The notes under the pieces are model-generated. The model had not been told where the DNA came from. It saw only the letters and a list, made by a program, of their open reading frames with translations, and searched no databases. Positions 4,760-36,928 of a stretch of 36,928 nucleotides of DNA are shown here, in pieces (the stretch's first letter is position 1; each line of letters starts with the position of its first letter). This stretch comes from Burkholderiales bacterium. GTDB lineage: Bacteria; Pseudomonadota; Gammaproteobacteria; Burkholderiales; Burkholderiaceae_E. The stretch lies in the NCBI GenBank assembly GCA_017307915.1, contig JAFKGG010000387.1:1-36928 (forward strand), written 5' to 3'. The translations under genes and the position numbers were made by a program.

Positions 4760-6219
4760 CCGAAGAGATCCTCGTCAATCACACCGCGCACGAAACCCGC
4801 GTCGCCGTCGTACAGCAAGGCGCCACGCAGGAACTGCACATCGAACGCGCCGCCGCGCGCGGACTGGTCGGCAACGTCTACCTGGGCAAGGTGCTGCGCG
4901 TGCTGCCCGGCATGCAGTCGGCGTTCATCGACATCGGCCTGGAACGCGCTGCGTTCCTGCACGTGGCCGACCTGTGGCAATCGCGCAGCGGCGCGCACAA
5001 CGGCGGCAATTCGGTGCCGATCGAAAAGCTGCTGTTTGAAAGCCAGCCGCTGCTGGTGCAGGTCATCAAAGACCCGCTCGGCACCAAGGGCGCTCGCCTG
5101 TCGACGCAGATCAGCATCGCCGGCCGCCTGCTAGTCTACCTGCCGCAAGACCCGCACATCGGCGTGTCGCAGCGCATCGGCGACGAAGCCGAGCGCCAGC
5201 AGCTGCGCCACCGTCTGCAAAAGGTGCTGCCGCCCGAGGAAAAAGGCGGCTTCATCATCCGTACCTCGGCCGAAGACGCCGACGAAACCGAGCTGGCTGC
5301 CGACGTCGAATATCTGCGCCGCCGCTGGCGCCAGATCCTCGACGGCAGCCGCCAGAAGACCGCGCCGCTGCTGCTCTACCAGGAACTGAGCCTGGGCCAG
5401 CGCGTACTGCGCGACATCGCCAGCGACAGCACCGGCGCCATTCTGATCGACTCGGTCGACGCCTTCGCCGAGCTGTCGGAATTCGCCCGCACCTACATGC
5501 CCTCGATGGCCGGCCGGCTGCGCCAATACAGCGGCGAACGCCCGCTGTTCGAGCTGCACGGCGTCGAAGAGGAAACCACCAAGGCCCTGTCGCGCCGCGT
5601 CGACCTGAAGTCGGGCGGCTATCTGATCATCGATCAGACCGAGGCGATGACGACGATCGACGTCAACACCGGCGGCTACATCGGCGGGCGCAACTTCGAC
5701 GACACGATTTTTCGCACCAACCTGGAAGCCGCCCACGCCATCGCACGGCAACTGCGCGTGCGCAACCTGGGCGGCATCATCATCATCGACTTCATCGACA
5801 TGTCCAGCGGCGAGCACCGCGACGCCGTGCTGCAGGAGCTGCGCCGCGCGCTGGCGCGCGACCGCACCAAGTCGAGCGTCAACGGCTTCACGTCGCTGGG
5901 CCTGGTCGAAATGACGCGCAAGCGCACGCGCGAATCGCTGGCGCACCTGCTGTGCGAGCCGTGTCCGACCTGCGAAGGCAAAGGTCAAGTGAAGACCGCG
6001 CGCACCGTCTGCTACGAGATCCTGCGCGAGATCCAGCGCGAGGCGCGGCAGTTCAATCCGAAGGAATTCCGGATCGTGGCGTCGCAGGACGTGATCGATC
6101 TGTTCCTGGAAGAGGAGTCGCAGCCGCTGGCGGCGTTGGGGGACGTGATCGGGCGGCGGATTTCGTTGCAGGTGGAGACGGTTTATTTGCAGGAGCAGTA
6201 CGATATCGTGTTGATGTAA
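4756..6219 (+). CDS. rng: Ribonuclease G
   Basis: RNase E/G-family endoribonuclease that matures the 5' end of 16S rRNA and degrades some mRNAs. An S1-like domain starts around residue 37 ([26 protein letters not shown]). The two catalytic metal-binding aspartates are D302 (in [14 protein letters not shown]) and D345 (in [10 protein letters not shown]). A zinc-link-type cysteine cluster [11 protein letters not shown] is at 400-410. At 487 residues it has RNase G length and lacks the long disordered scaffold of RNase E. The ATG at 4756 overlaps the maf stop. This is the last gene of the housekeeping block; base composition drops sharply right after its stop, and I see no strong terminator hairpin in the 138-base gap that follows. 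Confidence 0.97.
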
Positions 6220-6357
6220 AAGCATACGTACTAGCAGAGCCAGTTATATTGGATTGCGTGGTAATTCCCGCCTAAATCGCAGGCAAGGTAGCTCCAGCAG
6301 TCGAGGGGATGCTTTACTCGTAGAAGCCCTGTGGTTTGATCTTTAAGGCTGACCTAA

Positions 6358-7203
6358 ATGGAAGATCACCCGAATCGAGCCCCACATTTTTTTACCGAAA
6401 CTCCACTGCGAGCGATCCCGGAGATCCCTTACGAAAAACTCGTAGAGCTAAGCCAATTAGCGACCATAGCCGATACGGTTTCTCTATACGATGATCTTCG
6501 CATTGCAACAAAAAAATTAGCATGGACAAAGCTCGCAGGGCTGCGAGCCTTAGGAATAGATCAAATTCTATCGCAGCAAGAAGTTGATAGTTATAAGTTA
6601 TCCGATCCGGTCGCCCAGGCGGAGCACGCGCGAGCAATAACGGAACTAGTCACTTATGGGAAAGCGACGCTTGATTCAATTTCTCACTTTTTTAACAAAA
6701 GATGGGCGCTCGGCTTCAAGGAAAAAAGCAGTGACTTAAAGTGGTCGACGTTTCGACAGGGCGTGCTAGAAAAAATACCGGCATTAAAAGAATTTCTGAC
6801 CAACAGTACTTGGTGGCTCGACGGAAAAGCCAAAGAATCGAGCAGCTTACCCGCAGCTAGAGATTTCTGGATTCATCGAAGTTCGCCAGCTATTCGCCTC
6901 GTGTGGCCCCCTATCGAGATAGGGGTACTTCCGATACCTAAGACCCTTACACAAAGCTTATCCACCCACGTCTGCAGTGAGAACTTTTACAGCACTCATG
7001 ATTTTGCAAGCCTACATCTTTCAAAGCTCACCTCTCTATTTCACACAGCTTTAGAAGCAGCAATCGCTGAAGAGCGTCAACACAATCCAGGATATGTAAA
7101 CAAAACCGACAATGAAACGGTAATGGAGTTTTATCCATTTGTACTTTCTACAAGCATGCAGATCGCAGGGATCAAGCTCGGACCGTTCTCTCAACCGTCA
7201 TGA
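6358..7203 (+). CDS. Uncharacterised protein with HEPN-like R-x4-H motif, in AT-rich insert
   Basis: I do not recognise the family. It is a 281-residue, largely helical, soluble protein with no signal peptide or membrane segment. Residues 168-173 read RDFWIH, matching the R-polar-x3-H active-site pattern of HEPN RNases found in abortive-infection and toxin proteins; the flanking sequence RDFWIHRSS resembles the RN/RDxxxHR style of such proteins. Helices before it (about 85-150) would supply the rest of the bundle. The ATG at 6358 follows an in-frame TAA directly, so no longer form is possible; the weak ribosome site is AAGG at 6344. GC is visibly lower and codon use different from the flanking housekeeping and transport genes, indicating transfer. 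No obvious antitoxin gene adjoins. The HEPN reading is inference from one motif. Confidence 0.75.
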   Translation: MEDHPNRAPHFFTETPLRAIPEIPYEKLVELSQLATIADTVSLYDDLRIATKKLAWTKLAGLRALGIDQILSQQEVDSYKLSDPVAQAEHARAITELVTYGKATLDSISHFFNKRWALGFKEKSSDLKWSTFRQGVLEKIPALKEFLTNSTWWLDGKAKESSSLPAARDFWIHRSSPAIRLVWPPIEIGVLPIPKTLTQSLSTHVCSENFYSTHDFASLHLSKLTSLFHTALEAAIAEERQHNPGYVNKTDNETVMEFYPFVLSTSMQIAGIKLGPFSQPS

Positions 7204-7469
7204 AGCAGAACACGATCCCTTGGTATCAAAGCATTAATGTGATTAAACGCTATTAGCCGACATTGTGCAGCTCAAGATCGCACTGACGCAGTTGGTATCC
7301 CAACTCACCTCAGATCCACGCGATCAACTATTGTGGGAATTGGGGGTTGCAAAGCCCAAGCTATTTCTGATCTCCTGCGACACACCCTTGCTCTGTGACG
7401 TCGGCATGCGCGGATATATGCTTTCCTCAGTAAATAGGTGGCCGATCCCTTTTGCCAACAGCGACGTGA
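7204..7469. other. Low-GC spacer with possible coding remnant
   Basis: Between the HEPN-like gene and lysE. A plus-strand frame opens with GTG at 7265 and reads about 68 residues before running antisense into lysE. The text does not match a family I know and may be a fragment of a gene that arrived with the insert. Base composition returns to the high-GC level at about 7470, which I take as the right edge of the insert. Confidence 0.35.
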
Positions 7470-8096
7470 TCAGGCATTACGCCGATAAAGCGCCAACGAC
7501 CCCGCCAGCGCGATCAACGCCCCACCACACGCGCGATCCAACCAAAGCGCCCCTTTGGCGCGAAGAAATCGAATCGCCCGCGCCCCAGTCAACGCATAGG
7601 CCAGCATCACGACGAAATCGATGCCGGCAAATACGACGGCCAGCGCGGCATACTGCGGCAGTTGAGGCGCTGCCGGCACGATGAACTGCGGCAAGAACGC
7701 CGAGACGAAGAGATAGCCTTTCGGATTCGTGACGGAGACGAGAAAACTTCGCAGGAAGATCGTTTTCGCGGAAGCGTTCCGACGAGAGAGGTCTTCGGAC
7801 GGCATGGCAAGCGTGCCGCTCGACCCCAGAAGGCGAATACCCAGATATGCCAGGTAGACCACGCCCACCCACTTGACCACCGAGAACCAGAACTCCGACG
7901 CTGCCAGCAGCGCGCCCAAGCCGACGGCAGCGGCCGAGACCAGCATGAAATCCGAGAGCACCGCTCCGAACATCCCAGGAACCGATGCGCGCACCCCGAA
8001 TCGGGAGCCGTTCGAAAGCGCGAGCAGCATAGTGGGGCCGGGCGTGACGATGGCAATGAAAGCAACGACGGAGAAGATCAGAAGTGTCTGGGTCAT
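7470..8096 (-). CDS. LysE/RhtB-family amino-acid exporter
   Basis: Inner-membrane efflux protein of the LysE/RhtB superfamily, which exports basic amino acids, homoserine, threonine or related compounds. The N-terminus MTQTLLIFSVVAFIAIVTPGPTM contains the family signature ending in TPGP, followed by GSRFGVRASVPGMFGAV and the NPKGYLFVSAFLPQF segment near the middle. About six hydrophobic segments and 208 residues agree with the family. The frame continues 26 codons upstream to 8174, but M at 8096 is preferred because the signature helix begins there. It is divergent from the arsR-rhodanese gene across a 200-base region. The exported substrate cannot be told from sequence. Confidence 0.92.
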   Translation of the reverse strand: MTQTLLIFSVVAFIAIVTPGPTMLLALSNGSRFGVRASVPGMFGAVLSDFMLVSAAAVGLGALLAASEFWFSVVKWVGVVYLAYLGIRLLGSSGTLAMPSEDLSRRNASAKTIFLRSFLVSVTNPKGYLFVSAFLPQFIVPAAPQLPQYAALAVVFAGIDFVVMLAYALTGARAIRFLRAKGALWLDRACGGALIALAGSLALYRRNA

Positions 8097-8267
8097 ATCG
8101 GTCCTGGCGCTTTCCAGCGTTCCTTCGACGATTATCTCCGATAGCCATTCGCGCCGATAGCCGGTTGCTTGCATGCCGGTCGCGGCATTTCGCGGTTTGC
8201 CTCCTTCTGCCCTTCAGCGCCAATTCGCCAACAATCGCTACCCCACTACTCCCTGCAACGCCCGGCA

Positions 8268-8293
8268 AACATTCTAAAAATCGTTAGAATGTT
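8268..8293. promoter_or_regulatory. Perfect palindromic operator just upstream of the ArsR-rhodanese start
   Basis: Perfect 10-base arms AACATTCTAA (8268-8277) and TTAGAATGTT (8284-8293) flank a 6-base spacer. The right arm ends three bases before the ATG at 8297. Symmetry, AT-rich arms and position are typical of ArsR/SmtB operators, so autoregulation is the natural reading. It may also act on the divergent lysE promoter. Confidence 0.75.
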
Positions 8294-8296
8294 GGC

Positions 8297-8950
8297 ATGC
8301 GAGAACTCAAAGACCACCTGTACGACCAAGTCGCCCGCATCGGCAAGGCCGTCGCCAGCCCGAAGCGGCTCGAGCTCATCGAACTGCTCTGCCAGGGCGA
8401 AAAGACCGTCGAAACCCTCGCCGCCCAGGCCGACATCAGCGTCAAACTCGCCAGCGCCCACCTGAAGGAACTGCGCCTGGCCCGTCTGGTAGACACTCGC
8501 AAAGACGGTAGATACGTGCTGTACCGTCTGGCCGGCACCAGCGTCGCCGACCTGTGGGTGAGCTTGCGCGCCGAAGCCGAAGAGCGCCTCGTCGAGCTAC
8601 AGATGGCGCTGTCTTCGATCGCCGCGCATGGCGACGAACTGAAAGGCGTCGACCGCGCCGAGATCCTGCGCCGCGCCGCCACCGGCGAAGTGATCGTGCT
8701 CGACGTGCGTCCTCAGGAGGAATTCGCGGTGGCACACCTGCCGCATGCGCGTTCCCTGCCGCTGGGCGAACTCAGGAAGCGCATCGCAGGCCTGCCGAAA
8801 AACGTACCGGTCGTGGCCTACTGCCGCGGCCCGTTCTGCCTGATGGCCAAGGACGCGGCCGAGCTGCTGCGCAAGAAGGGCTACCAGGCATTCCACCTGA
8901 CCGACGGCGTGGCCGAGTGGCGTGCGCGCGGCCTGCCGGTCGCTGAATGA
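8297..8950 (+). CDS. ArsR-family regulator fused to rhodanese domain
   Basis: Two-domain sensor-regulator. Residues 1 to about 90 are a winged helix of the ArsR/SmtB type (SPKRLELIELLCQGEKTVETLA, then SVKLASAHLKELRLARLVDTRKDGRYVLY). Residues about 118-215 are a single rhodanese domain (VIVLDVRPQEEFAVAHLPHA) with active-site loop CRGPFC: C176 is the catalytic sulfur carrier and C181 a second loop cysteine able to form a di- or polysulfide. Such fusions are thought to sense reactive sulfur or related species through the cysteines. No Shine-Dalgarno site is evident between the operator and ATG 8297, so the transcript may be leaderless or nearly so. Downstream genes follow on the same strand, and the MFS transporter at 9058 is the likely regulated partner. 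Confidence 0.93.
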   Translation: MRELKDHLYDQVARIGKAVASPKRLELIELLCQGEKTVETLAAQADISVKLASAHLKELRLARLVDTRKDGRYVLYRLAGTSVADLWVSLRAEAEERLVELQMALSSIAAHGDELKGVDRAEILRRAATGEVIVLDVRPQEEFAVAHLPHARSLPLGELRKRIAGLPKNVPVVAYCRGPFCLMAKDAAELLRKKGYQAFHLTDGVAEWRARGLPVAE

Positions 8951-8963
8951 CACGAGGCCTGCC

Positions 8964-9053
8964 ATGTCGCTTCGGCAACATATCGCCGCCGACGCCGCGG
9001 GGCTGTACCTGGCCAACCAACGCGTCATAGCTCTCGGGCTCGCCCCCGCCTGA
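8964..9053 (+). CDS. Possible 29-residue small protein between regulator and transporter
   Basis: ATG at 8964 is preceded by a purine-rich ACGAGG at proper spacing and reads MSLRQHIAADAAGLYLANQR, ending at TGA 9051-9053, four bases before the MFS start. It could be a genuine small protein, a leader ORF for translational coupling of the transporter, or chance. It has a soluble, helical look with no membrane segment and I do not recognise it. Confidence 0.35.
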   Translation: MSLRQHIAADAAGLYLANQRVIALGLAPA

Positions 9054-27492: not shown

Positions 27493-27521
27493 TTGACGTT
27501 GTCCACACAAATATGTATTAT
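27493..27521 (+). promoter_or_regulatory. Near-consensus sigma-70 promoter of the toxin-antitoxin pair
   Basis: TTGACG (27493-27498) and TATTAT (27516-27521) are 17 bases apart, each one base from consensus. The start codon follows 16 bases after the -10 box, with GGAGGT at 27528-27533 as a perfect ribosome site. AT-rich sequence between the boxes is a likely place for autorepression by the antitoxin-toxin complex. Confidence 0.75.
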
Positions 27522-27537
27522 TGATGTGGAGGTAAAT

Positions 27538-27813
27538 ATGTCTCAACCCGACGCCATCACCATCAATATTCGTGCGAAAGCTCGGCAGCGCGACCTGATC
27601 GACCAAGCCGCCGCCCGGCTGGGCCGCACCCGGTCGGACTTCATGCTCGAGGTCTCTTGCAAGGCGGCCGAGGATGTGTTGCTGGACCAGACGTATTTCG
27701 GACTGAGTGCCGAACAATTCACGCAGTTTCAGGCGCTGCTTGATGCGCCGCCCGCCGTCTCGCCACGTCTGCTCCGAACTTTGAGCGCCAAAGCCCCCTG
27801 GGAACGCAAGTGA
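27538..27813 (+). CDS. DUF1778/TacA-type antitoxin
   Basis: A 91-residue ribbon-helix-helix antitoxin. MSQPDAITINIRAKARQRDLIDQAAARLGRTRSDFMLEVSCKAAEDVLLDQ is the DUF1778 DNA-binding half; the C-terminal part (FGLSAEQFTQFQALLDAPP and SPRLLRTLSAKAPWE) is the toxin-neutralising tail. ATG 27538 is preceded by GGAGGT at ideal spacing; 15 upstream codons in the same frame overlie the promoter and are rejected. It neutralises the acetyltransferase toxin encoded next and represses the shared promoter. The toxin start overlaps its stop. Confidence 0.93.
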   Translation: MSQPDAITINIRAKARQRDLIDQAAARLGRTRSDFMLEVSCKAAEDVLLDQTYFGLSAEQFTQFQALLDAPPAVSPRLLRTLSAKAPWERK

Positions 27814-28319
27814 TGCTGGCGCCGCAGCCGTTGGCTGCCGGCCATCGTCTCGATGAGTTCAAATCCGGAGAGCCCTCGCTGGACGAGTGGCTGCGGCGGC
27901 GCGCGCTGAGGAATCAGGCTAACGGGTCGTCACGAACCTACGTGATCGTCGAGGATGACGCCGTGATCGGCTATTACTGCCTGGCAGCGGGGGCCATCGG
28001 TCATGCGGAAGCGCCGGGCAACCTGAAGCGCAATCGTCCCGATCCGATTCCCGTCATCGTGCTGGGCCGTCTGGCCATCCATCAGAACCATCACCAGCGC
28101 GGGCTCGGTACTGCGCTGATACGCGACGCGATTCTGCGGACACTGCGTGCAGCCGAGGTTGCCGGCGCGGCTGCGATTCTGGTTCACGCCATCTCCGAGC
28201 AAGCGCGGCGATTCTATCTATCGCGCGGCTTCGTCGAGTCCCCCATTCAACCGATGACCTTATGCCTGCCTCTGAGTGCCGTGGTAGCCACCTTGGGCGA
28301 GCTGCGCAAGCAGCCTTGA
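27813..28319 (+). CDS. GNAT-family toxin, TacT-like
   Basis: A 168-residue GCN5-type acetyltransferase. Known relatives (TacT, AtaT, ItaT) acetylate the amino group of charged tRNAs and stop translation. The N-terminus reads LAAGHRLDEFKSGEPSLDEWL, as in the DUF1778-paired group. The acetyl-CoA loop is NHHQRGLGTALI, preceded by VIVLGRLAIHQ, and the likely catalytic Tyr lies in ARRFYLSRGF. ATG 27813 overlaps the antitoxin stop as TGATG; the GTG at 27810 would add one residue. The pair is complete and seems intact, so it is probably functional. Confidence 0.92.
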   Translation: MLAPQPLAAGHRLDEFKSGEPSLDEWLRRRALRNQANGSSRTYVIVEDDAVIGYYCLAAGAIGHAEAPGNLKRNRPDPIPVIVLGRLAIHQNHHQRGLGTALIRDAILRTLRAAEVAGAAAILVHAISEQARRFYLSRGFVESPIQPMTLCLPLSAVVATLGELRKQP

Positions 28320-28358
28320 GATAGCCCATGCTTCTCGCTGGCTGAAGGTACCTACTGT

Positions 28359-28378
28359 GGCTCTTGGCTCGAAGAGCC
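28359..28378. terminator. Hairpin between toxin gene and converging gene
   Basis: Perfect seven-base arms GGCTCTT (28359-28365) and AAGAGCC (28372-28378) with a six-base loop, in the 67-base gap between two converging stops. No strong T-run follows on either strand; position alone favours a terminator. Confidence 0.45.
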
Positions 28379-28386
28379 CCCAGAGC

Positions 28387-29658
28387 TCAATCCAACACGA
28401 TCAGCCGGTTGTGGCGTCCAGTCGCTAGCTCGACGTCCATCGCCGCCGCGATGCGGCGCACCGTCTCGTTGCACTGCTCGCGGGTGGCCGGCTCATCCTT
28501 GGTAATGTAGACACCGACGCGGCTGAACTTCTCCTCCGGCATGCCAGCCTCGCGCGCCGACAGTCCCAGCAGGCAGGGGCCGACGCGCACGGTATTGCCG
28601 TCGATGCCGCGACGAGGGTCTATCCAGTCGGGCGCCAATGCGGCGCCCGGTAGCGCGAGCACGACGCGACGCAGGTGTTCCAGCAGCGCGGGCTGCACGC
28701 GCTCGACGTGATACTCGATCGTTCCGTGGGACGGGGCGGTCAAGCGTCCCCGCCAGGGCAGCGCCTGCGCTCCGACGCGCGGCACCAGCCGTTCCTGCCC
28801 ACCGGCGTCGCGCTGCCAGACGAAATAGTGGTCGATCCAGCGCAGGTCCATGTCCTGCGTGTCGGCAAAGGGCATGCGGCGCCGGTCCGCGCGCAGTTCG
28901 TAGGCGGTGCCGCGGAGCATGTCCACCACCAGCAGGCCATATATCTCGCCGTGACCGCGCGCGTAGTCGTTCTGCGAGCCGGCCAGCACATATTGGGTGC
29001 GGCCGGGCGAGAAGGCACGCGCGAGATCGCCATCGCGCGACAAGTCGGTCACAGGCTTGCCCGGAACCATCGGCACCCAGGGTTCGACCTTGTGCAGTTG
29101 CAGGCTGCTGACGTCCAGCACCAGCGCCGAGCCCAGGAGCAGGAAGCGGCCGCCCTGCAGTACGGTTTGCGTGGCGAGGTCGACCTTGCTGATCCCCCAG
29201 GACTGCGGCGCGCCCGGCTGACCGGCCTTGCTATCCAGCCACTGCGCTTCGGCCAGAGACGAGCTCTGGCTACTGAGCGGCTGCACGCGCAACTCGCCGT
29301 TCTGCTCGCTGACCAGCGTGAAGTCGCGCTCGACCAGCAGTATCGCCGGCTGCGGGGCGCCCACCAGGCGCAACGCCTGCCAGAAACGGTCGCCACGGCC
29401 GGGCACCTGCACGGAGCGGCCACGCCAGCGCAGTGCAAAGGACGTGACCTCGACCGTGGCGAAGGGGTTGCCGCCGATGTTGGGAAAGGTGCCGCTGGAG
29501 ACGCGCCGGGGGCTGGCGACGATCTCGAAGGGGCCGTGCTGGATCGTTTGCGCCTGCGACGCGCGTGTCGGGGCGAAGGCGGCGAGCAAGACCGCGGCAA
29601 GGCCGAACAGGCCGATGGCGATACGGCGAAGAAAGTCGCGCTTGTCGGTAATCTTCAT
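28387..29658 (-). CDS. Unknown exported protein with Tat-like KR signal
   Basis: A 423-residue protein I cannot assign. N-terminus MKITDKRDFLRRIAIGLFGLAAVLLAAFAPTRASQA is an export signal; KRDFLR resembles a twin-arginine motif with Lys for the first Arg, so Tat export is possible. The mature part looks beta-rich with repeating strand-turn patterns (FEIVASPRRVSSG, FALRWRGRSVQVPG, VEYHVER-like segments) and no catalytic motif I know. Three cysteine-poor domains are not distinguishable by eye. M at 29658 is preferred over the frame start at 29730 because the signal begins there. It is the most downstream gene of a minus-strand run. Possible roles include a periplasmic scaffold or an accessory to the neighbouring exported proteins. 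Confidence 0.82.
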   Translation of the reverse strand: MKITDKRDFLRRIAIGLFGLAAVLLAAFAPTRASQAQTIQHGPFEIVASPRRVSSGTFPNIGGNPFATVEVTSFALRWRGRSVQVPGRGDRFWQALRLVGAPQPAILLVERDFTLVSEQNGELRVQPLSSQSSSLAEAQWLDSKAGQPGAPQSWGISKVDLATQTVLQGGRFLLLGSALVLDVSSLQLHKVEPWVPMVPGKPVTDLSRDGDLARAFSPGRTQYVLAGSQNDYARGHGEIYGLLVVDMLRGTAYELRADRRRMPFADTQDMDLRWIDHYFVWQRDAGGQERLVPRVGAQALPWRGRLTAPSHGTIEYHVERVQPALLEHLRRVVLALPGAALAPDWIDPRRGIDGNTVRVGPCLLGLSAREAGMPEEKFSRVGVYITKDEPATREQCNETVRRIAAAMDVELATGRHNRLIVLD

Positions 29659-29806
29659 GGAGCGGAGCTCTCGATCGCCACGGTCCGGCACCAGAACAAT
29701 TGAACCGGTACTGTCTCTGTCGCGTTCCATGCCTCAGCTCTTTCGTTGGGGGCCTTGCTGCCCAGCGTGCTGACGCGCACGCCGGGCAGGGCTGATCGAG
29801 GCGTTC

Positions 29807-30007
29807 TCAGCCAGGCGCTTTGTCCTTTAGAGAAACCAGGCGGCCGCCCGAGGCCCAGTTCTGCGGCTTCACGTCTTCGAACACCACGAACGTGGATTGC
29901 GCATTCGCGTTGCCGTGTTCGACCAGCGCTTTCGTGATCGCCTCGGCGATGCGCGCTTTTTGTTCTTCGGTACGGCCTTCCAGCATCTGCACGTTGACGT
30001 AAGGCAT
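29807..30007 (-). CDS. 4-Oxalocrotonate tautomerase-family enzyme
   Basis: A 66-residue member of the 4-OT family. The processed N-terminal Pro that acts as catalytic base is present (MPYVNVQMLEGRTEEQKARIAEAITKALVEH), and the length is typical. These enzymes interconvert 2-hydroxydienoates and oxo-enoates in aromatic catabolism. ATG 30007 has AGGAG about nine bases upstream on its strand; a longer frame to 30133 is rejected because the Pro must follow Met. A 182-base gap with no recognised feature separates it from the intradiol dioxygenase upstream on the same strand. Confidence 0.9.
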   Translation of the reverse strand: MPYVNVQMLEGRTEEQKARIAEAITKALVEHGNANAQSTFVVFEDVKPQNWASGGRLVSLKDKAPG

Positions 30008-30189
30008 TTCTTCGGGCTCCTTGGAGACGGCGTAACGAAGGTTCGCCGAGAGCTGGCAGCGTATCAGGTGTGGGCGTCGGCACGGCGATGCGCCTTCACG
30101 TGGCCGTTGCGCTGCGGTCGGTGTCCTGCGCATCAGCCACCTGCATCCGCTGCTGCATCAGCCATGTCTCGGCCACGCCGCACCACGCT

Positions 30190-30825
30190 TCAGCCGCGCA
30201 GCACCACGTCGAAGTGCCCCGTCAGCCGCGCTGCCCGTTCGGAGCCCAACCCCGCTTCCGTCATCGGAATCGTCACCCGCTTGCGCCCGGCCTCGGGCAA
30301 CCAGCGCCATAGTCCATCACGCTCGTTGCCTGGTTCACCTTCCACGAAGATCTGCGTCACCAGCCGCCGCGCCTGCGGCGAAACCGCCGACAGATGGATA
30401 TGCGGCGTGCGCCCCGGATACGGCACCGGCCGGATCGTCTCGAACGCCCAGCGCCCCGCAGCATCGCTGCGCACCCAGCCGAAGCCGAGAAACGCCGGAT
30501 CGACCCCATCGCTACCGCCATCGCGTGAGTGCCGGTAACGTCCAAGCCCGTCGCATTGCCAGATCTCGACACGAGCACCCGCGATCGGCTGGCCGCGCAG
30601 ATCGCGTACCGTGCCTGACAGGGCGAGCGGCACACCGGCCTTCAGCGGACCGACAATCAGCGAGGCACGCGGCGCGGCCGGCCAGCTTTCGGGATAGAAC
30701 GGCCCTTCGGTCATCGCCGGGGTGGGATCGAGCGCGCCGTCGGCCGCGCGGGCGCGCATGCCTGGGATCAGTCCACCGAACGCGGCTATCGCGGCGAGGA
30801 GTCTGCGGCGTGACAGGGGGTACAT
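30190..30825 (-). CDS. Exported intradiol ring-cleavage dioxygenase
   Basis: A 211-residue protein of the protocatechuate 3,4-/catechol 1,2-dioxygenase fold. The N-terminus MYPLSRRRLLAAIAAFGGLIPG is a good twin-arginine signal. The body has TEGPFYP (39-44), GARVEIWQCDGLGRYRHS and PYPGRTPHIHLS. The four Fe(III) ligands are visible as Y97, Y136, H142 and H144. Ordinary catabolic enzymes of this fold are cytoplasmic, but a branch with Tat signals acts outside the membrane on catechols or lignin-like phenolics. With the tautomerase next to it on the same strand, a catechol-type substrate is plausible. The C-terminus FDVVLRG is complete. Confidence 0.9.
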   Translation of the reverse strand: MYPLSRRRLLAAIAAFGGLIPGMRARAADGALDPTPAMTEGPFYPESWPAAPRASLIVGPLKAGVPLALSGTVRDLRGQPIAGARVEIWQCDGLGRYRHSRDGGSDGVDPAFLGFGWVRSDAAGRWAFETIRPVPYPGRTPHIHLSAVSPQARRLVTQIFVEGEPGNERDGLWRWLPEAGRKRVTIPMTEAGLGSERAARLTGHFDVVLRG

Positions 30826-30910
30826 ATCGGCGGTTCCGTCATCGATGGGTTTACTGAGCAGAGGATAGCGCCGTCTTCACTAGGGGGTGCAAGACTGAGG
30901 ACACGCCCAA

Positions 30911-30929
30911 GGGCTGCTTGAAGTAGCCC
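30911..30929. repeat. Short imperfect palindrome
   Basis: GGGCTGCTT and AAGTAGCCC flank a single central G, with one G-T mismatch across the dyad. It lies eight bases from the larger palindrome and may be part of the same element debris. Confidence 0.4.
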
Positions 30930-30936
30930 CCTGAAT

Positions 30937-30981
30937 TGATCTGACCCCCGAAAGTTGGACAACCTTTCGGGGGTCAGATCA
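30937..30981. repeat. Perfect 18-base-arm palindrome resembling paired IS ends
   Basis: Left arm TGATCTGACCCCCGAAAG (30937-30954) and its exact complement (30964-30981) flank nine bases, TTGGACAAC. The text TGA-x-CTGACCCCC-x-AAAGTTGGACA is like the terminal repeats of several IS3-family elements. Two facing ends with almost nothing between suggest an internally deleted element or a target for end-directed insertion. It abuts a truncated transposase exactly at its outer edge. It could also act as a hairpin in RNA. Confidence 0.7.
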
Positions 30982-31105
30982 CGGCAGGCACGGACTTGTC
31001 GATGGTGCGCAGGAACGCCAGGAACTCCTGATGACGATACCGCGGCTTGCACTCGGCCAGCACTGCGCCGTTGAGCACGTTTCGTAGCGCCAGCCACAGC
31101 CGTTC
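30982..31105 (-). pseudogene. Fragment of IS630-type transposase
   Basis: On the minus strand this reads NVLNGAVLAECKPRYRHQEF then LAFLRTIDKSVPA, which resembles the middle of IS630-family transposases (ALNV-x-NG-x-V-x-x-x-C-x-PRHRHQEF-x-x-FL-x-x-ID). Upstream on the strand the similarity fades within about 10 residues of L-W-L-A-L-R; downstream it ends abruptly where the palindrome begins. The first catalytic Asp region and the DNYATH and WLN blocks are missing, so it is dead. The rest of the 329-base gap between 30826 and 31154 has no gene. Confidence 0.55.
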
Positions 31106-31154
31106 AATCGCCTCGCCACAAAAAGACAGACAGGCCCCCTGTTCCGCTCTCGCC

Positions 31155-34100
31155 TCAGCGTAGTGCCCCCGCCGGGCAGCGCGTCTGCGGCTCCTCTCGG
31201 CCAGGCAGACTGGAGCGCAGAGCCACGCCCCGGCATCCGTAGCGCTCAGCCAGCGGGCTGAAAAATGCCACGACCCCACCGCTATCGCGTATCGATCCGA
31301 CGTCATAGTGGAGCACATCATTCCCTGCCAGGCCCGGCAGAAGTTTCGCCGGATGCAATGCCGCGGCATACCATACCTCGTCGTCCATTGCCTCCCGCAT
31401 GAATGTCCAGCGCGCCATGCAGCCCCGCTGGCTCTGGTGCATCAGGCGGGTATTGACGGCATCGACACCTAGTGAGCGCACTCCCAGTACCAGACTGGCC
31501 AAGTCCGCATCGTCCAGGTAGCCCGCGCGCGCGCTCCGCAATGGTGGCAACTCCGGACGGAGTTGCTCGAGCCGTCGCGCCGCGCCCCGGATCGAGTCGC
31601 GCACTTCCGGCGTGAACCCGCTGAGGGCCGCCACGACATCCTCATCCCGCACACTACAGAAGGCTTCCTTGTCGCCGGCCAGCGCGCGCATCAGCAAGGC
31701 CAGCATCAGACGGTCCGCGGCTTCGAGGCCCGTCTCCGGGCTGGGTCTCTCCCCCATAGACCGCCAGGTACCCGTCCACGGCGGCAGATCGTCCAGACTC
31801 CGGCCCCCGTCCACGCGATGCAATACATCGCCTTGGCCGACGTACAAGGCCAGGCCGCTGCTGTGCGCGAAGTCCATCGCCAGACGAGCGAACGCTTCGT
31901 CGAGGCCTCGCGTCGAACTACTGGCAACTGCGGCTCGCAACACCGCCGGCACAGGCACCTCGCTTCGCCTGGCCCAAGCCGGCACCGGATGCCCGACGCG
32001 ACTACGTGCGAGCTGTTGCCTGACCGTCCAGGGTCTGCTGCCGAGCAGAAAATCATTGACAGGCAAGCGGGACCGGAGCGCATCCAGCGTCGGCAGCGCC
32101 AACATCAGATGGCCACCCTTGAGCGCAACCAGGCTGGGCCGTAGCGAATGGCTCGCATCGTTCAGATCATCGATGCTGAAGACCCTCGGCATCGGATGCG
32201 TGTGCACATCGGCGGCCCAGCGCGCCTGCAAAACTTCGGGGAACGACATCAGATCGCGATGCGTGTCGGCCAGGGTGCGGTGGACGAATGTGCCGTGGCC
32301 ATCCTGCACCGCCGAAGGCGAGATGCCTTCTCGCGTGACGAACAGATCCAGGGTTGCCTCGCGATCGGCAGCAGTGGCTTTGTGCTCGACCTGGTTCAGC
32401 CGGGCGGCCAAGCCCTTGGGCAGCAGCATGCGCTGCGGCGCACGCGGCGGCGCCAGCGGCAAGCGGCCCGCCACGACCTGCTGAAGCACGTTTTCCAGTT
32501 GCGCCTCGGCCGGCGGCCGGCACCACAGCGGATCCTGCAATGCCAGATCCATCAGCCGCGCAGGTTCGGTGAGCAGCGACCAAGCAGGCCGGCCCGGCTC
32601 AAGCCAGCGGCCCGACGTGCTGGCCCGCAACAAGCCGTTGCGGTCCACGACCTGAACCATGGGCGTCAGATGCCCAGGCAGGGTACTAGCTACACCACCC
32701 GCCAAGGTGAAAAAGAACCGGCCGGGCGAACGCAAGGCAAGCGCCTGCCATTGCGCATCGTAGTGCTGGCTTCGGGCCGGGTCGGCCCCGGCGGCAGGCA
32801 CCGCGATGACCACCAGATGCGTCTGCGCCGGCGCCCGGCCATCGGCCGCACGCTGCGGCAAGCTTTTATGCAGGGCCTGCACCACCTGATCGCAGACGCT
32901 GCAATCCGCCTGCCAATAGACCACGATGGCCTGCCGGCCGGCCAGCAGTGTGCGCAGGCGGCTCTCCCGCACATCAAGATCCTGGCCGCGCGCGTCCCGG
33001 AAAGCAGCGTTGACCCACAGCTCCAGCGGCTGGGGGGTCTGCCAGGTCAACCAAGGAGCGGCGGGATCGTTCAAGCGCCTCAGCGCAGTATCGTCATCCG
33101 GCGGCTCATTCGGTTCATGCTGCGTGGGCGCAGGGCCGCGCACCCATGCATCGCAGCGGTCCGGGCGCAGATCGAGGTAGCGATCGACCGCGCGGAAATC
33201 GGGGCCGCGCACGTGCGGCGCCGCGGCCGTGGGGACGACGCAGTCGAGATCCACCGGGCCGCTCAGGCACAGCAATTCGACACGATCGCCGTCTCGACGG
33301 CGCACGGTGCCATGCACGTTCTCCACCGCTTCGCCGGTGGCAGCCGCACAGGCGATGGCGGGCCCCTGGCCGGATACGGTCAAGGCGGTGGACCATGCGG
33401 TCGTGCGACGCGTCCAGGCCGGCCGCTGCCGCGGCGCCTGGTCGCGTTCAGGAGCGCCTTTGAGCACCACGCTTGGCAAAACTTCGCTCAGGCGCTGGCC
33501 GGCCCGCACTGTCGACACGATGCGCGATGCGCGCTGCTGTTCGGGGCCGTCCATGACCAGCCGGCGCTGTTTCGCGAGCAGATCGTCATGCCCGCCCGGG
33601 ACACCGCTCTGGATCGCCAGAGTCCACAACGCATGCGCCGCGCCGTGGTCCAGGGCTACGCCACGGCCGACCGCGTATTGACTACCGAGCGCCCGCAGTG
33701 CACTGGAGTTTCCGGCGTCAGCCGCACGAACCAGCCACGCGATGCCCCGTGCGGTATCGGGAGCAACGCCATAGCCCGTCAGATAGTCCATGCCGAGCAG
33801 ATACTGACTGGATGGAACACCGGCCTGCGCCGCTCGCTGCTGCCAATACACGGCTTCCAGTGGGTCACTCAAGCTCCCGCCGGCGTGCCTGTAGAAGGTC
33901 TCCAGCAGAGCAATGGCTCGAGGCTCACCTGCGTGGCCGAGCCGGCGCAGTGATTCCTCGGTTTCTGCGAAACGCTCCGGGCCAGGCGGGTTCCTGGCTG
34001 TCAACGTTCGAAACGCCAAATCGGCAATGGCGCCGCGATCGCCCCGGTTTGCAGCCGCCTGGAGCAGCCGCCAGCCCACGGGCCAATCGCGCTGCGAATC

Positions 34101-34352
34101 GTAGGAGTGCTCCATGACCATCCGGCCCAGCTCCGCCAGACAATCGGGGTTCGCTGGCCAAACACAGTTGCGCCGCGCTTGCAAAGCGAGCTGACTGTCC
34201 CTCTCGTCCAGGAACTGAAACGCATGCTCCAGATCTCGGCTGACTTGGGCAGCGTCGTTGGTCAACGCCGGTCCAGCCGAGAACAGCCCCACAAGCAGCA
34301 CGAGTTGCCGAAAGAGGCGAATGCGGATCGGATCCAGGATCGGGATTGTCAT
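31155..34352 (-). CDS. Large exported protein: Sel1 repeats, CSVC thioredoxin-like and JAMM-like domains
   Basis: A 1065-residue protein with an unusual domain order. N-terminus: a hydrophobic export or anchor segment (RLFRQLVLLVGLFSAGPAL, about 12-30). Residues about 160-250 hold at least two clear Sel1-type repeats (YWQQRAAQAGVPSSQYLLGM, then GIAWLVRAADAGNSSALRAL). Residues about 470-610 look thioredoxin-like: IVVYWQADCSVCDQVVQAL contains a CSVC redox pair (C484, C487), and HLTPMVQVVDRNG matches the later strand. Residues about 660-780 include VHTHPMPRVFSIDDLNDA, fitting a JAMM/JAB or DUF4329-type metal site (H717, H719, S726, D729). The C-terminal third is unassigned. M 34352 is preferred over 34424 because the signal starts there. 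Two unknown genes precede it on the strand. Confidence 0.85.
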   Translation of the reverse strand: MTIPILDPIRIRLFRQLVLLVGLFSAGPALTNDAAQVSRDLEHAFQFLDERDSQLALQARRNCVWPANPDCLAELGRMVMEHSYDSQRDWPVGWRLLQAAANRGDRGAIADLAFRTLTARNPPGPERFAETEESLRRLGHAGEPRAIALLETFYRHAGGSLSDPLEAVYWQQRAAQAGVPSSQYLLGMDYLTGYGVAPDTARGIAWLVRAADAGNSSALRALGSQYAVGRGVALDHGAAHALWTLAIQSGVPGGHDDLLAKQRRLVMDGPEQQRASRIVSTVRAGQRLSEVLPSVVLKGAPERDQAPRQRPAWTRRTTAWSTALTVSGQGPAIACAAATGEAVENVHGTVRRRDGDRVELLCLSGPVDLDCVVPTAAAPHVRGPDFRAVDRYLDLRPDRCDAWVRGPAPTQHEPNEPPDDDTALRRLNDPAAPWLTWQTPQPLELWVNAAFRDARGQDLDVRESRLRTLLAGRQAIVVYWQADCSVCDQVVQALHKSLPQRAADGRAPAQTHLVVIAVPAAGADPARSQHYDAQWQALALRSPGRFFFTLAGGVASTLPGHLTPMVQVVDRNGLLRASTSGRWLEPGRPAWSLLTEPARLMDLALQDPLWCRPPAEAQLENVLQQVVAGRLPLAPPRAPQRMLLPKGLAARLNQVEHKATAADREATLDLFVTREGISPSAVQDGHGTFVHRTLADTHRDLMSFPEVLQARWAADVHTHPMPRVFSIDDLNDASHSLRPSLVALKGGHLMLALPTLDALRSRLPVNDFLLGSRPWTVRQQLARSRVGHPVPAWARRSEVPVPAVLRAAVASSSTRGLDEAFARLAMDFAHSSGLALYVGQGDVLHRVDGGRSLDDLPPWTGTWRSMGERPSPETGLEAADRLMLALLMRALAGDKEAFCSVRDEDVVAALSGFTPEVRDSIRGAARRLEQLRPELPPLRSARAGYLDDADLASLVLGVRSLGVDAVNTRLMHQSQRGCMARWTFMREAMDDEVWYAAALHPAKLLPGLAGNDVLHYDVGSIRDSGGVVAFFSPLAERYGCRGVALRSSLPGREEPQTRCPAGALR

Positions 34353-34536
34353 GCGCGCAAGGCTAGCAGCGCTGATCAAAAACGGCCCCTCGAACCTCGG
34401 TCCGAGCAAGCGTAGACAGCTCATTCAATGACGTCTCCATTGCACTGAGGAAGCTCTGCCACACGGCTATCGGCGCCAACCGGATCGCGCTTGCCGTCGG
34501 TTGTTTCATCGTGGCAAATGGTTCAGGATCGGCGAG

Positions 34537-35286
34537 CTAACGCGAGGCAGGCAGAAAATCAGCATAGCCCGGCATGACAAGTGTCACCGCTCCACAGTGG
34601 GGCGGTTGAGCGGGCGAGTCGGGCAGTGCTTCGATGTATGCGTTGGGCGGGGTCCGCCTGCGCCAGGCCAGCAAGGGGCGGGCGAACTCGGCCTCGATCA
34701 GGTCGCTACCCGTGAAATTGGCGGCCACCACCGCCTCGGCCACGTCGTGGGGAAAGTCGACCCCAGCCGCGAAACCGCTGGCTTCGTCGACGACCACGCC
34801 GCCCAGAAAACGCTCTCTTGCGGAAGGCCCGGCTGCTTGCTCCGACGTCTCCATCCACAGCCACTGCTTGGCCCCGATGGTCCACAAGAGCGGCCGCCAG
34901 GCGGCTGGCTCCGGGTAGCCCGAGCGGCCGTCCATGCCCGGCGCCAGGCCGGTCCAGCGAAGTGCGGCAGGCGGTTGCACCCGGCCGCTCCTGCCGCCGC
35001 TCTGCGCAAGACGAAAGACGCCCGCCGCACGCAGACGATCATCCGGGCCGTAGACCAACTTCAGCCACAGGCTCCCCCGGCGCCGCAACTCGATGCGGTG
35101 CGTCGGGCACATCGCCACGGCCCGCACGCGTTGCGCCTTGCCCAGTCGCGCCAGCACCCTGGCCTGCGAATCTCCCAGATCCACTATGGGCTCCGCAGGC
35201 GCTGCACGCACGTGGCCGGACGACATCCCGAGCAGCACGACCGACACGGACAGCGCAAAGCGACAGGTCGCCCGCCATCGCTTCAC
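34537..35286 (-). CDS. Unknown exported protein, partner of the large Sel1 protein
   Basis: A 249-residue protein of no family I recognise. Signal peptide LSVSVVLLGMSSGHVRA is cleaved before APAEP. The mature part begins VDLGDSQARVLARLGKAQRVRAVAMCPTHRIELRRRGSLWLKLVYGPDDRL, which resembles small periplasmic SmpA/BamE-like beta proteins with a GDSxxxVLARLG start, followed by a Pro/Arg-rich region and FAAGVDFPHDVAEAVV. It starts with GTG at 35286, overlapping the preceding gene's stop by four bases. A 184-base gap separates it from the large Sel1-thioredoxin protein downstream; I see no gene in that gap. Confidence 0.8.
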   Translation of the reverse strand: MKRWRATCRFALSVSVVLLGMSSGHVRAAPAEPIVDLGDSQARVLARLGKAQRVRAVAMCPTHRIELRRRGSLWLKLVYGPDDRLRAAGVFRLAQSGGRSGRVQPPAALRWTGLAPGMDGRSGYPEPAAWRPLLWTIGAKQWLWMETSEQAAGPSARERFLGGVVVDEASGFAAGVDFPHDVAEAVVAANFTGSDLIEAEFARPLLAWRRRTPPNAYIEALPDSPAQPPHCGAVTLVMPGYADFLPASR

Positions 35287-35681
35287 AGCAGCCGCTCCAT
35301 CCGCCAGGCCGTTTCGACCAGGCCCTCGTCGACCTCCAACCGGATCTGGCTCTGGTAGTTGCCGAAGTAGGCGTCATGCAGTTTCCCGGGGGGTGAACCG
35401 ATACCGATACGCAGATCGCCGCGGACCCATTCGGCCGGCAGCGGTTGCCCATCGGTCAGACGCAAGCGCCCGTGCACCGCCACCAGCCAGAGCTCACGGC
35501 CGCGAATCTCCCAGTGCGCGACATAGCCTCGTTGCAGCGCGGTGGACCCCTCCAGCGCCAGCGCGATCCGATCAGGCAGATCGTTCTCCTCGACCACGCC
35601 GGCGCCGAAGCCCAGCGGCGTGAGGATCACCCCTCGAGTGCCGTCCCACAAGGCAATGGAGTCGAGAATCTGAACCGTCAT
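35283..35681 (-). CDS. Unknown 132-residue cytoplasmic-looking protein
   Basis: I do not recognise this family. It has no signal peptide or membrane segment. The beta-rich text (GVILTPLGFGAGVVEENDLPDRIALALEG, HWEIRGRELWLVAVHGRLRLTDG, AEWVRGDLRIGIG, SQIRLEVDEGLV) resembles small immunity- or chaperone-like proteins, but no motif is diagnostic. It begins at ATG 35681, 37 bases after the LysR stop on the same strand, and overlaps the exported protein's GTG start, so the two are translationally coupled. It may accompany the exported proteins as a cytoplasmic partner. Confidence 0.8.
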   Translation of the reverse strand: MTVQILDSIALWDGTRGVILTPLGFGAGVVEENDLPDRIALALEGSTALQRGYVAHWEIRGRELWLVAVHGRLRLTDGQPLPAEWVRGDLRIGIGSPPGKLHDAYFGNYQSQIRLEVDEGLVETAWRMERLL

Positions 35682-35718
35682 TCTTCACATGCTCCCGCAA
35701 GTGTCGCTGGACATCGCT

Positions 35719-36645
35719 TCATCCCCTCCCCCTGCCCTCCCCCAGCCACACAAACAACCTCCCCGCCACCGACGCCCCCGGCGTCCCGGCCAGCATCCCC
35801 ACCAGCAATTGCCTGACCGCCCACGGCTCGTGAATCTCCACCCGCCGCAACCCGCGAAACGGCCCGAACCGCTGCCACGCATTCGCCGGCACGATCGCCA
35901 CGCCAAACCCGGCCTGAGCCATCATCACCATGCCGTCGAAGCTGGCAACGCGAATCGACGAACGCATGCGCATGCCATGGCGCCGCGCCTGATCAGCCAA
36001 TAGCTGCTCGGTTTCAGTACCGGCCAACGGGCCAATGACCTCATGCGCCGCGATATCGGCAATGCCCACGCTGCTACGGCGTGCCAGCGGATGACCTGCA
36101 CGCACCAGCAAGGTCAAGCGATCATCACGATAGACCTGTGCACGCATACCGGTAGGCACGGCGCTGGCAGCAAACACACCGACATCGATCTGCTTTTTTC
36201 GCAGCGCCTCGATCACCTGCCGGCTCGACAGACTCTGGAACGACAACCCGATCGACGGAAACTGCTGCGTGAAGCGCGCCAGGTCATCGGGCAACGACTC
36301 CATCAGCGAAAATACCGAAGCGGCGAGCCGCACGGTGCCGCGAGTGCCGTCGGTAAAACCGGCCATGTCCAGCGACAACCCATCCAGTTCCTTCAAGATG
36401 CGATGTGCGCGTTCGAGCAGCGCCTGGCCGGCGCCGGTGAATTCCACGACATGCGGCGTGCGATTGACCAGTTGAACGCCGAGCACCCGCTCCAGCTCCT
36501 GGATGCGCCGGCTCACGGCCGACGGCACCATGCTGATCTGGGCAGCGGCTTTTTTGAAGTTGCCCTGCTCGGCGACAGCGACGAACACGCGCAGCGTCTG
36601 CAGATCGACGTGGCGCGGCAGATTGAGGGCCGGGCGTTTCGGCAT
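35719..36645 (-). CDS. LysR-family transcriptional regulator
   Basis: A 308-residue LysR-type regulator. The helix-turn-helix is DLQTLRVFVAVAEQGNFKKAAAQISMVPSAVSRRIQELERVLG. The effector domain starts near VRLAASVFSLMESLPDDLARF and includes the FDGMVMMAQAGFGVAIVP segment. M 36645 is preferred over the frame start at 36708 because the extra 21 residues are Ala/Pro-rich and unlike the family. It is 37 bases upstream of the unknown gene pair and on their strand, so read-through from its transcript could express them; its own target may instead be the gene ending at the window's right edge. Confidence 0.92.
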   Translation of the reverse strand: MPKRPALNLPRHVDLQTLRVFVAVAEQGNFKKAAAQISMVPSAVSRRIQELERVLGVQLVNRTPHVVEFTGAGQALLERAHRILKELDGLSLDMAGFTDGTRGTVRLAASVFSLMESLPDDLARFTQQFPSIGLSFQSLSSRQVIEALRKKQIDVGVFAASAVPTGMRAQVYRDDRLTLLVRAGHPLARRSSVGIADIAAHEVIGPLAGTETEQLLADQARRHGMRMRSSIRVASFDGMVMMAQAGFGVAIVPANAWQRFGPFRGLRRVEIHEPWAVRQLLVGMLAGTPGASVAGRLFVWLGEGRGRG

Positions 36646-36657
36646 GCGTGCTCCGTG

Positions 36658-36695
36658 GGCGGCGTGGCTGCGTGGCGGGAATGGCGGCGTGGCTG
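36658..36695. repeat. Two 13-base direct repeats upstream of the LysR gene
   Basis: GGCGGCGTGGCTG occurs at 36658-36670 and 36683-36695, 25 bases apart start to start. It lies just upstream of the LysR start and may be a protein-binding site or GC-rich chance repetition. Confidence 0.4.
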
Positions 36696-36840
36696 GCGCG
36701 CCGGCCATCCTAAATCACGCGCGCCGATGGCGCAGCAGTTCGTTGCCTGAAGCGCACGGGCGCACGCAGCGCATCCGCCGGGCGAACATGCCGATCGCGT
36801 GATCTGCCGCGCTGACGCGCTCCCTGATCGCGCCCGCTCC

Positions 36841-36928
36841 TCAATACAGCGGATGCTGCGCCACGCCGGCCGGATCGTCAACGACGCCGCCGTCGTCGGC
36901 AAAGCGCATCGTCGCCCGCCGGCCCGCC
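36841..36928 (-). CDS. C-terminal fragment of a gene cut by the window edge
   Basis: A minus-strand frame is open from the right edge and ends at TGA 36843-36841, reading ATMRFADDGGVVDDPAGVAQ then HPLY. Only 29 codons are visible. The frame has the codon pattern of a real gene end and no competing stop, but I cannot name the family. Confidence 0.4.
   Translation of the reverse strand, partial: AGRRATMRFADDGGVVDDPAGVAQHPLY

What the first reader, a model, noticed from the sequence alone, without database searches (positions are those of the whole stretch)
31155..35681. Three-gene envelope unit built around a Sel1-thioredoxin-JAMM-like protein
Seen: a 1065-residue exported protein carries Sel1 repeats, a CSVC redox pair at 484-487 and an HTHP-x5-SIDD motif at 717-729, preceded on the same strand by a small cytoplasmic-looking protein overlapping an exported protein. 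Known: JAMM metallo-isopeptidases need H-x-H and S-x-x-D plus an upstream Glu; CxxC thioredoxin folds handle disulfides; Sel1 repeats bind proteins. Inference: a periplasmic protein-processing or quality-control machine, or an interbacterial effector with partners. I know of no described protein with this domain order.
Basis: partly seen in the sequence, partly recalled or inferred. Interest (0 to 1): 0.7.

Follow-up and report, generated by a model that had tools for sequence, protein, structure and literature searches.

The report
Exported Sel1, thioredoxin-like, JAMM-like orphan protein
A bacterial genome carries a large, apparently secreted protein that seems to join a protein-binding scaffold, a disulfide-handling domain and a possible metal-enzyme site in one chain, next to two small partner genes; no other full-length copy turned up in the collections searched, and the enzyme site is plausible but unproven.

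Summary
The ORF at 31155-34424 (-) encodes 1089 aa, or 1065 aa from the inner ATG at 34352. CSVC is at 484-487, HTHP at 717-720 and SIDD at 726-729 (1065 numbering). The two upstream genes overlap by 4 bp. Sel1 repeats are certain (Pfam 7.8e-9). A glutamate fit for the JAMM site lies upstream (E665, 52 residues before the first His; RadC-like sequences have it at 50). No other full-length copy was found in the collections searched. A second contig of the same assembly keeps the P2-P1 order at about 55% identity, but its P1 is cut to the last 122 residues, without either motif; a third relative is a broken P2 without P1. So the three-gene unit is not shown to be conserved. I read P1 as an accessory exported redox/metallohydrolase-like protein with a secreted partner; a JAB-type effector, or no JAMM at all, are the rivals.

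The parts
31155..34424 (-). P1: exported-looking multidomain protein, 1089 aa (1065 aa from the ATG at 34352)
   Evidence: ORF and translation; Sel1 Pfam hit; N-terminal hydrophobic stretch
34537..35286 (-). P2: secreted-looking protein of 249 aa, no family found; GTG start overlapping the P3 stop by 4 bp
   Evidence: 54% identical intact relative in L033 2940-3668; partial, frame-broken relative in L050
35283..35681 (-). P3: cytoplasmic-looking protein of 132 aa, no family found
   Evidence: weak relative in G022 (33% over residues 46-127, E 9.3e-4)
33615..34073 (-). Sel1-repeat region (residues 118-270 of 1089)
   Evidence: PF08238 7.8e-9, best stretch 204-239, two stretches on the piece; phrog_8741 6.5e-19 at 118-270
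32595..33008 (-). thioredoxin-like region (residues 473-610 of 1089, outer limit my estimate) with CSVC at 484-487 and LTPMVQVVDRNG at 562 (1065 numbering)
   Evidence: AhpC-TSA 0.052 on the whole protein, 0.0064 on the piece, both under the cut-off; motif positions
32100..32360 (-). JAMM-like region (residues 689-775 of 1089, limits my estimate): E665, H717, H719, S726, D729 in 1065 numbering
   Evidence: Prok-JAB 0.064, 0.0084 on the piece, under the cut-off; spacing; shuffles; hhalign probability 0.68% and 0.33%
31158..31523 (-). conserved C-terminal segment of P1 (residues 968-1089 of 1089), three cysteines shared with L033
   Evidence: tblastn 56.6% to L033 2562-2924, 2e-36; shared cysteines; dN 0.378, dS 0.943
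34347..34365 (-). 19-bp element TAGCCTTGCGCGCATGACA at the inner P1 start, shared (18 of 19) with L033 3701-3719 upstream of its P2
   Evidence: only these 2 places in the own assembly at up to 2 mismatches of the pattern with N at the differing base; the backwards control pattern had 1; shuffles as good: 1 of 1000 against the P1 start

Best explanation
P1 is an exported, accessory multidomain protein. N-terminal Sel1 repeats bind a protein partner or substrate (family knowledge). A TlpA/AhpC-type thioredoxin fold with a CSVC pair handles disulfides outside the cytoplasm (inferred). A divergent JAMM-type metal site (E665, H717, H719, D729) cuts a bond in the bound substrate, most likely a peptide bond (inferred). 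A cysteine-bearing C-terminal domain works with the secreted partner P2, which has two conserved cysteines; P2 with this C-terminus is the only combination seen at two loci. P3 is probably coupled to P2 through the 4-bp overlap, but was seen with P2 only in the window. Shown: the ORFs, the Sel1 repeats, the P2-P1 C-terminus pairing in two contigs. Suggested by hydrophobic N-termini: export. Inferred: thioredoxin fold, metal site, catalysis, partner contact.
For: ORFs and motifs. Sel1. The only Pfam family returned for each piece is of the superfamily predicted beforehand: AhpC-TSA 0.0064 and Prok-JAB 0.0084 (HMMER's filters drop most matches above about 0.1). HxHP-SxxD is rare by chance (21 of 20,000 shuffles). 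E665 lies 52 residues before H717; in 11 of 15 fetched sequences with the motif a Glu in a similar hydrophobic run lies at 50, in the other 4 at 60-64 (15 of 30 loci had the motif by my pattern, 15 were dropped). P2 and the P1 C-terminus are together in L033 with dN below dS: 0.396/1.565 and 0.378/0.943. C60 and C231 of P2 are the same in both copies.
Against: Both enzymatic assignments are under Pfam's cut-offs. hhalign of residues 640-860: against 4 JABs score 16.77 (60 shuffles: mean 12.2, maximum 16.32), probability 0.68%, 24 columns around HTHP only; against 15 JAB/RadC-like sequences 14.38 (shuffle maximum 20.49), probability 0.33%, aligned to a stretch without the motif. PDB sequence searches returned no JAB and no thioredoxin. 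The His-to-Ser spacing is x6, while 14 of the 15 compared have x7. The E-x-x-G of the four Prok-JAB sequences is E-A-T-L here; a second Glu, E656, lies 61 residues upstream, so the assignment of E665 is a choice. The only relative of P1 lacks the Sel1, thioredoxin-like and JAMM-like parts. No full-length P1 in other genomes searched.
Confidence: 0.45

Rival explanations
1. P1 is a secreted effector of the polymorphic-toxin kind with a Tox-JAB-like domain (perhaps a nuclease rather than a peptidase), used against other bacteria, and P3 or P2 protects the producer.
For: Secreted JAB domains with the signature E, H[ST]H, S, D (Tox-JAB-2, DUF4329) are described in polymorphic toxins and proposed there to be nucleases; Sel1 is listed among the repeats of such proteins (PMC3482391, passages and section 26). 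P1 has HTH and FSxxD and looks exported. Its distribution is patchy: only the own assembly among 74 family, 399 order and 369 class genomes gave a credible match.
Against: DUF4329 was not returned for the piece. It was also not found in 60 order genomes including the own one, but its 14 control genomes were empty too, so that search proves little. The JAMM-like region is internal, not C-terminal. P3 lies upstream of P2 and P1. No known immunity or defence family was found for P2 or P3.
Confidence: 0.2
2. There is no JAMM enzyme: the HTHP-SIDD run is a chance or structural resemblance inside a Sel1/thioredoxin-like scaffold protein, and the locus is a decaying lineage-specific gene set.
For: hhalign probability under 1%; sub-threshold Pfam; relatives truncated or broken; the motif cannot be tested across relatives because none covers it.
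Against: Motif rare by chance, an upstream Glu at a fitting distance, and Prok-JAB as the only Pfam family returned.
Confidence: 0.3

Closest known systems
JAMM/JAB metallopeptidases (Pfam Prok-JAB PF14464; RadC-like)
   Same: HxHP...SxxD run, Glu about 50 residues upstream in a hydrophobic run
   Different: Sub-threshold score, x6 instead of the usual x7 between His and Ser, no E-x-x-G, export-type N-terminus, fused to Sel1 and thioredoxin-like regions
Tox-JAB-2 / DUF4329 secreted JAB domains (PMC3482391, section 26 and table passages)
   Same: Secreted context, H[ST]H and S, D signature
   Different: No DUF4329 match; region is internal; no recognised immunity gene
TlpA / AhpC-TSA type thioredoxin-fold proteins
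   Same: Hydrophobic strand before CxxC, then TP and DRNG further on (layout recalled, not from a call)
   Different: Sub-threshold; no thioredoxin in the PDB sequence search; embedded in a 1065-residue protein
Exported Sel1-repeat proteins (AlgK, HcpC type)
   Same: Sel1 units after an export-type N-terminus; AlgK model 3.7e-9 but 35.8 bits against a cut-off of 700
   Different: The part of P1 after about residue 325 has no match to them

Membership tests
Sel1-repeat proteins | PF08238 match above its cut-off | tested here: met
   36.2 bits against 30.7; 45.8 bits on the piece
JAMM/JAB | profile match above cut-off | tested here: not met
   13.6 and 16.4 bits against 25
JAMM/JAB | E ... HxH ... 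SxxD residues at JAMM-like spacing | tested here: met
   E665, H717, H719, S726, D729; Glu-to-His 52, His-to-Ser x6. Of the 15 compared, L059 (HTHPHGGSHSSID) also has x6 if the Ser three before Asp is counted; the script printed 7 for it because it took the next Ser. E656 at 61 is an alternative Glu
JAMM/JAB | profile-profile similarity over the fold | tested here: not met
   probability 0.68% (score 16.77; maximum of 60 shuffles 16.32) and 0.33% (14.38; maximum 20.49); single-sequence query, so a weak test
JAMM/JAB | metal site in a structure; hydrolase activity | not testable with these tools
   structure prediction switched off
Thioredoxin-like (TlpA/AhpC-TSA) | profile match above cut-off | tested here: not met
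   13.9 and 16.9 bits against 26
Thioredoxin-like (TlpA/AhpC-TSA) | CxxC after a hydrophobic strand, later TP motif | tested here: met
   YWQADCSVC at 479, LTPMVQVVDRNG at 562; that these are the defining motifs is recalled
Thioredoxin-like (TlpA/AhpC-TSA) | sequence similarity to a solved thioredoxin-fold chain | tested here: not met
   43 PDB sequences at E up to 10, best 0.031, all named benzoylformate decarboxylase
Polymorphic toxin with Tox-JAB-2 | DUF4329 match | tested here: not met
   not returned at E up to 10 (filters drop most matches above about 0.1)
Polymorphic toxin with Tox-JAB-2 | adjacent immunity gene | tested here: inconclusive
   P3 and P2 have no family in Pfam, NCBIfam, PADLOC or PHROGs; no toxicity test possible

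The most novel reading that the evidence does not exclude
An extracytoplasmic JAMM-type peptidase fused to its own thioredoxin domain and a Sel1 scaffold: an envelope enzyme that opens disulfides and cuts the same client, working with a secreted cysteine protein (P2).
Probability: 0.2. Interest if true: 0.65.

Novelty: new variant of a known kind. Interest (0 to 1): 0.35.

Why it matters
PMC3482391 (section 26) states that previously identified prokaryotic JAB domains were intracellular, and describes the secreted ones it found as likely toxin modules or as secreted proteins of viruses and phages. A non-toxin, redox-coupled JAMM in the cell envelope would be a new use of the fold. As it stands the evidence is one full-length sequence, so its main worth is as a well-defined candidate for structure prediction.

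Tried and rejected
Relatives of the P1 part after the Sel1 repeats (residues 301-1089): 1 of 74 family genomes (E up to 0.001), 3 of 399 order genomes (E up to 0.01) and 3 of 369 class genomes (E up to 0.01) had any match, the own assembly included each time; the samples overlap. The three hits outside it were looked at and rejected. G342 (L035): a stretch with a stop inside and no ORF of this kind. G164 (L036): opposite a 667-codon frame that I read as a penicillin-binding protein (name recalled). G780 (L053): residues 315-404 of P1, 31% identity, E 0.0099, outside the motifs. With the whole P1, 38 of 61 relatives matched, own included; outside the own assembly every listed match lies within residues 97-325, the Sel1 part. 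Plasmids: 299 records matched the whole protein and the 20 listed lie within residues 23-324 (279 not seen); none matched residues 301-1089 at E up to 0.1, P2 or P3. Phages: 5 records, residues 93-273 only. Viral contigs: none for P1 or for its C-terminus. Genome contigs: 0 relatives for P1 (4 candidate stretches), 1 for P2 (53 candidate stretches, L050).

P2 profile A1: 12 of 399 order genomes at E up to 0.01, of which only the own assembly is convincing; the 11 others are 5.3e-4 or weaker and short, and were not inspected one by one. 1 of 74 in the family. 2 of 399 in the family of G825: G825 is L050's own genome, and the other, G1209, lies opposite a frame that I read as serine hydroxymethyltransferase (name recalled).

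The P3 relative in G022 has no P2 in the same genome by profile A1; that relative gave two weak plasmid matches, one annotated as a WG-repeat protein, not followed. An att-like repeat of the tRNA ends (13-base matches) was sought in the window, L033 and L050 and not found. A P1 remnant after P2 in L050 was sought and not found. Reading the L033 start element as the P3 start scored weaker (23 of 1000 shuffles) than as the P1 start (1 of 1000); against the wider 5.9-kb region 1 or more of 200 shuffles reached the P1-start score. PDB sequence searches: JAMM piece 1 hit at 0.49 (ATP synthase epsilon), thioredoxin piece benzoylformate decarboxylases, P2 profile 2 hits at E 1 or weaker. Rfam over 28000-36928: none.
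Full report
What is there. Three same-strand ORFs lie at 35283-35681 (P3, 132 aa), 34537-35286 (P2, 249 aa, GTG start) and 31155-34424 (P1, 1089 aa; 1065 aa from the ATG at 34352). P3 and P2 overlap by 4 bp; P2 and P1 are 112 bp apart. P1 and P2 carry N-terminal hydrophobic windows (mean 1.99 and 1.77); P3's best is 1.46, also near its N-terminus, and I read P3 as cytoplasmic without a signal-peptide predictor. Upstream is a LysR regulator on the same strand (35719-36708); downstream, also on the same strand, an intradiol-dioxygenase-like gene (30190-30825). Neither has an obvious link. A 601-aa antisense ORF lies opposite P1 and codon-position G+C does not separate the strands; the case for P1 rests on the Sel1 match and the L033 relative.

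Domains. Sel1 repeats are certain (PF08238 7.8e-9; phrog_8741 6.5e-19). For the middle part Pfam offers AhpC-TSA (0.052 on the whole protein, 0.0064 on the piece) and, over HTHP, Prok-JAB (0.064 and 0.0084); no other family was returned for either piece at E up to 10, though HMMER's filters drop most matches above about 0.1. The Prok-JAB match covers profile positions 70-102 of 114, the motif part, so it is not independent of the motif. The motif occurs in 21 of 20,000 shuffles, and in 280 of 20,000 without the Pro. PDB sequence searches returned no JAB and no thioredoxin.

The glutamate. A JAMM site needs an upstream Glu. P1 has E665 in EATLDLFV, 52 residues before H717, and also E656 at 61. 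Of 30 fetched Prok-JAB/RadC-like loci, 15 had the motif by my pattern and 15 were dropped. In 11 of the 15 a Glu in a similar hydrophobic run lies at 50 residues; in the other 4 an E-x-G-G or E-x-C-G lies at 60-64 ('RadC-like' is my reading of the sequences). So the residues are present at a fitting spacing. Against this, hhalign of residues 640-860 scored 16.77 against 4 JABs (just above the maximum of 60 shuffles, 16.32; probability 0.68%; 24 columns around HTHP) and 14.38 against all 15 (inside the shuffle range, maximum 20.49; probability 0.33%; aligned elsewhere).

Relatives. The window lies in a fragmented 6.1-Mb assembly (521 contigs, completeness 94.42, contamination 4.75). Another contig of it, C157 (L033, 6,309 bp), carries an intact P2 relative (54% identity) followed directly by the last 122 residues of P1 at 56.6% identity. 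After the P2 stop come three codons, an in-frame stop and then EGYLDDADL; about 967 residues of P1 are absent, and with them Sel1, CSVC and HTHP. The segment may be a remnant, or a short gene from the GTG at 2891. dN/dS is 0.25 for P2 and 0.40 for the P1 segment, which hints at stronger constraint on P2, but dS is near saturation. The assembly may hold more than one organism, so the two loci need not be paralogues of one genome. L050, a Burkholderiales MAG contig (JAIXKN010000007), has only the later part of P2 (residues 101-244) in two frames, 33 bp after a tRNA-Ser, with no P1 remnant found next to it and no P1 match in that genome. L033's P2 starts 109 bp after a tRNA-Val. No other credible relative was found in the family, order and class samples, plasmids, phages, viral contigs or genome contigs; these are samples and pattern scans, not all genomes.

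A small shared element. TAGCCTTGCGsGCATGACA sits at the inner P1 start in the window and upstream of P2 in L033, and nowhere else in the assembly at up to 2 mismatches; the backwards control pattern was found once. It suggests that the two loci share or exchanged start-region sequence, but not how.

Mechanism. The anatomy fits an exported protein that holds a client by its Sel1 repeats, handles its disulfides with the CSVC pair and perhaps cuts it at the metal site, with P2 as the partner of the C-terminal domain. Only Sel1 and the pairing of P2 with the P1 C-terminus at two loci rest on direct evidence; export is read from the N-termini. The effector reading is open: secreted JAB domains with H[ST]H are described as toxin modules and proposed to be nucleases rather than peptidases (PMC3482391, passages and section 26), but no DUF4329 match was seen.

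Literature. Searches for JAMM + Sel1 + thioredoxin + periplasm (0 papers), Sel1 + JAB domain (1 paper, PMC3482391) and Sel1-like repeat + periplasm + thioredoxin + operon (1 paper, PMC9803151, seen in the listing only) gave no description of this domain order; of PMC3482391 I saw passages and section 26, not its figures or supplements. That covers only the held open-access library.

Verdict. Observation confirmed; interpretation partly supported; three-gene unit not shown to be conserved; enzyme site plausible. Interest 0.35.

Noticed in passing
window 27493-28319 (+): A TacA1-type antitoxin gene (PF08681, 1.5e-22) followed by an overlapping GNAT acetyltransferase gene (PF13508, 8.1e-10), the layout of a TacA-TacT toxin-antitoxin pair (the pair's name is recalled).
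   Followed up: no
window 30930-30988: 25-bp inverted repeat, 88% complementary, arms 9 bp apart with CTTTCGGGGGTCAGATC cores, in the gap downstream of P1; looks like a REP-type or insertion-element palindrome (recalled).
   Followed up: partly
window 34347-34365 (-) and L033 3701-3719 (-): 19-bp element shared by the two loci and found only there in the assembly, in different places relative to P2 and P1.
   Followed up: partly
L033 3668-3854 and L050 9783-10408: Both other P2 relatives lie directly downstream of a tRNA gene (tRNA-Val, tRNA-Ser), without a detected att-like repeat.
   Followed up: partly
window 5001-9000: G+C falls to 0.525-0.594 against 0.597-0.716 in the other 2-kb windows wholly outside it; the ORF at 6358-7203 there has no Pfam family at E up to 1e-5.
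   Followed up: no
window 28387-29730 (-): 447-aa protein with no Pfam or PHROG match and only weak NCBIfam matches (E 0.12 or weaker).
   Followed up: no
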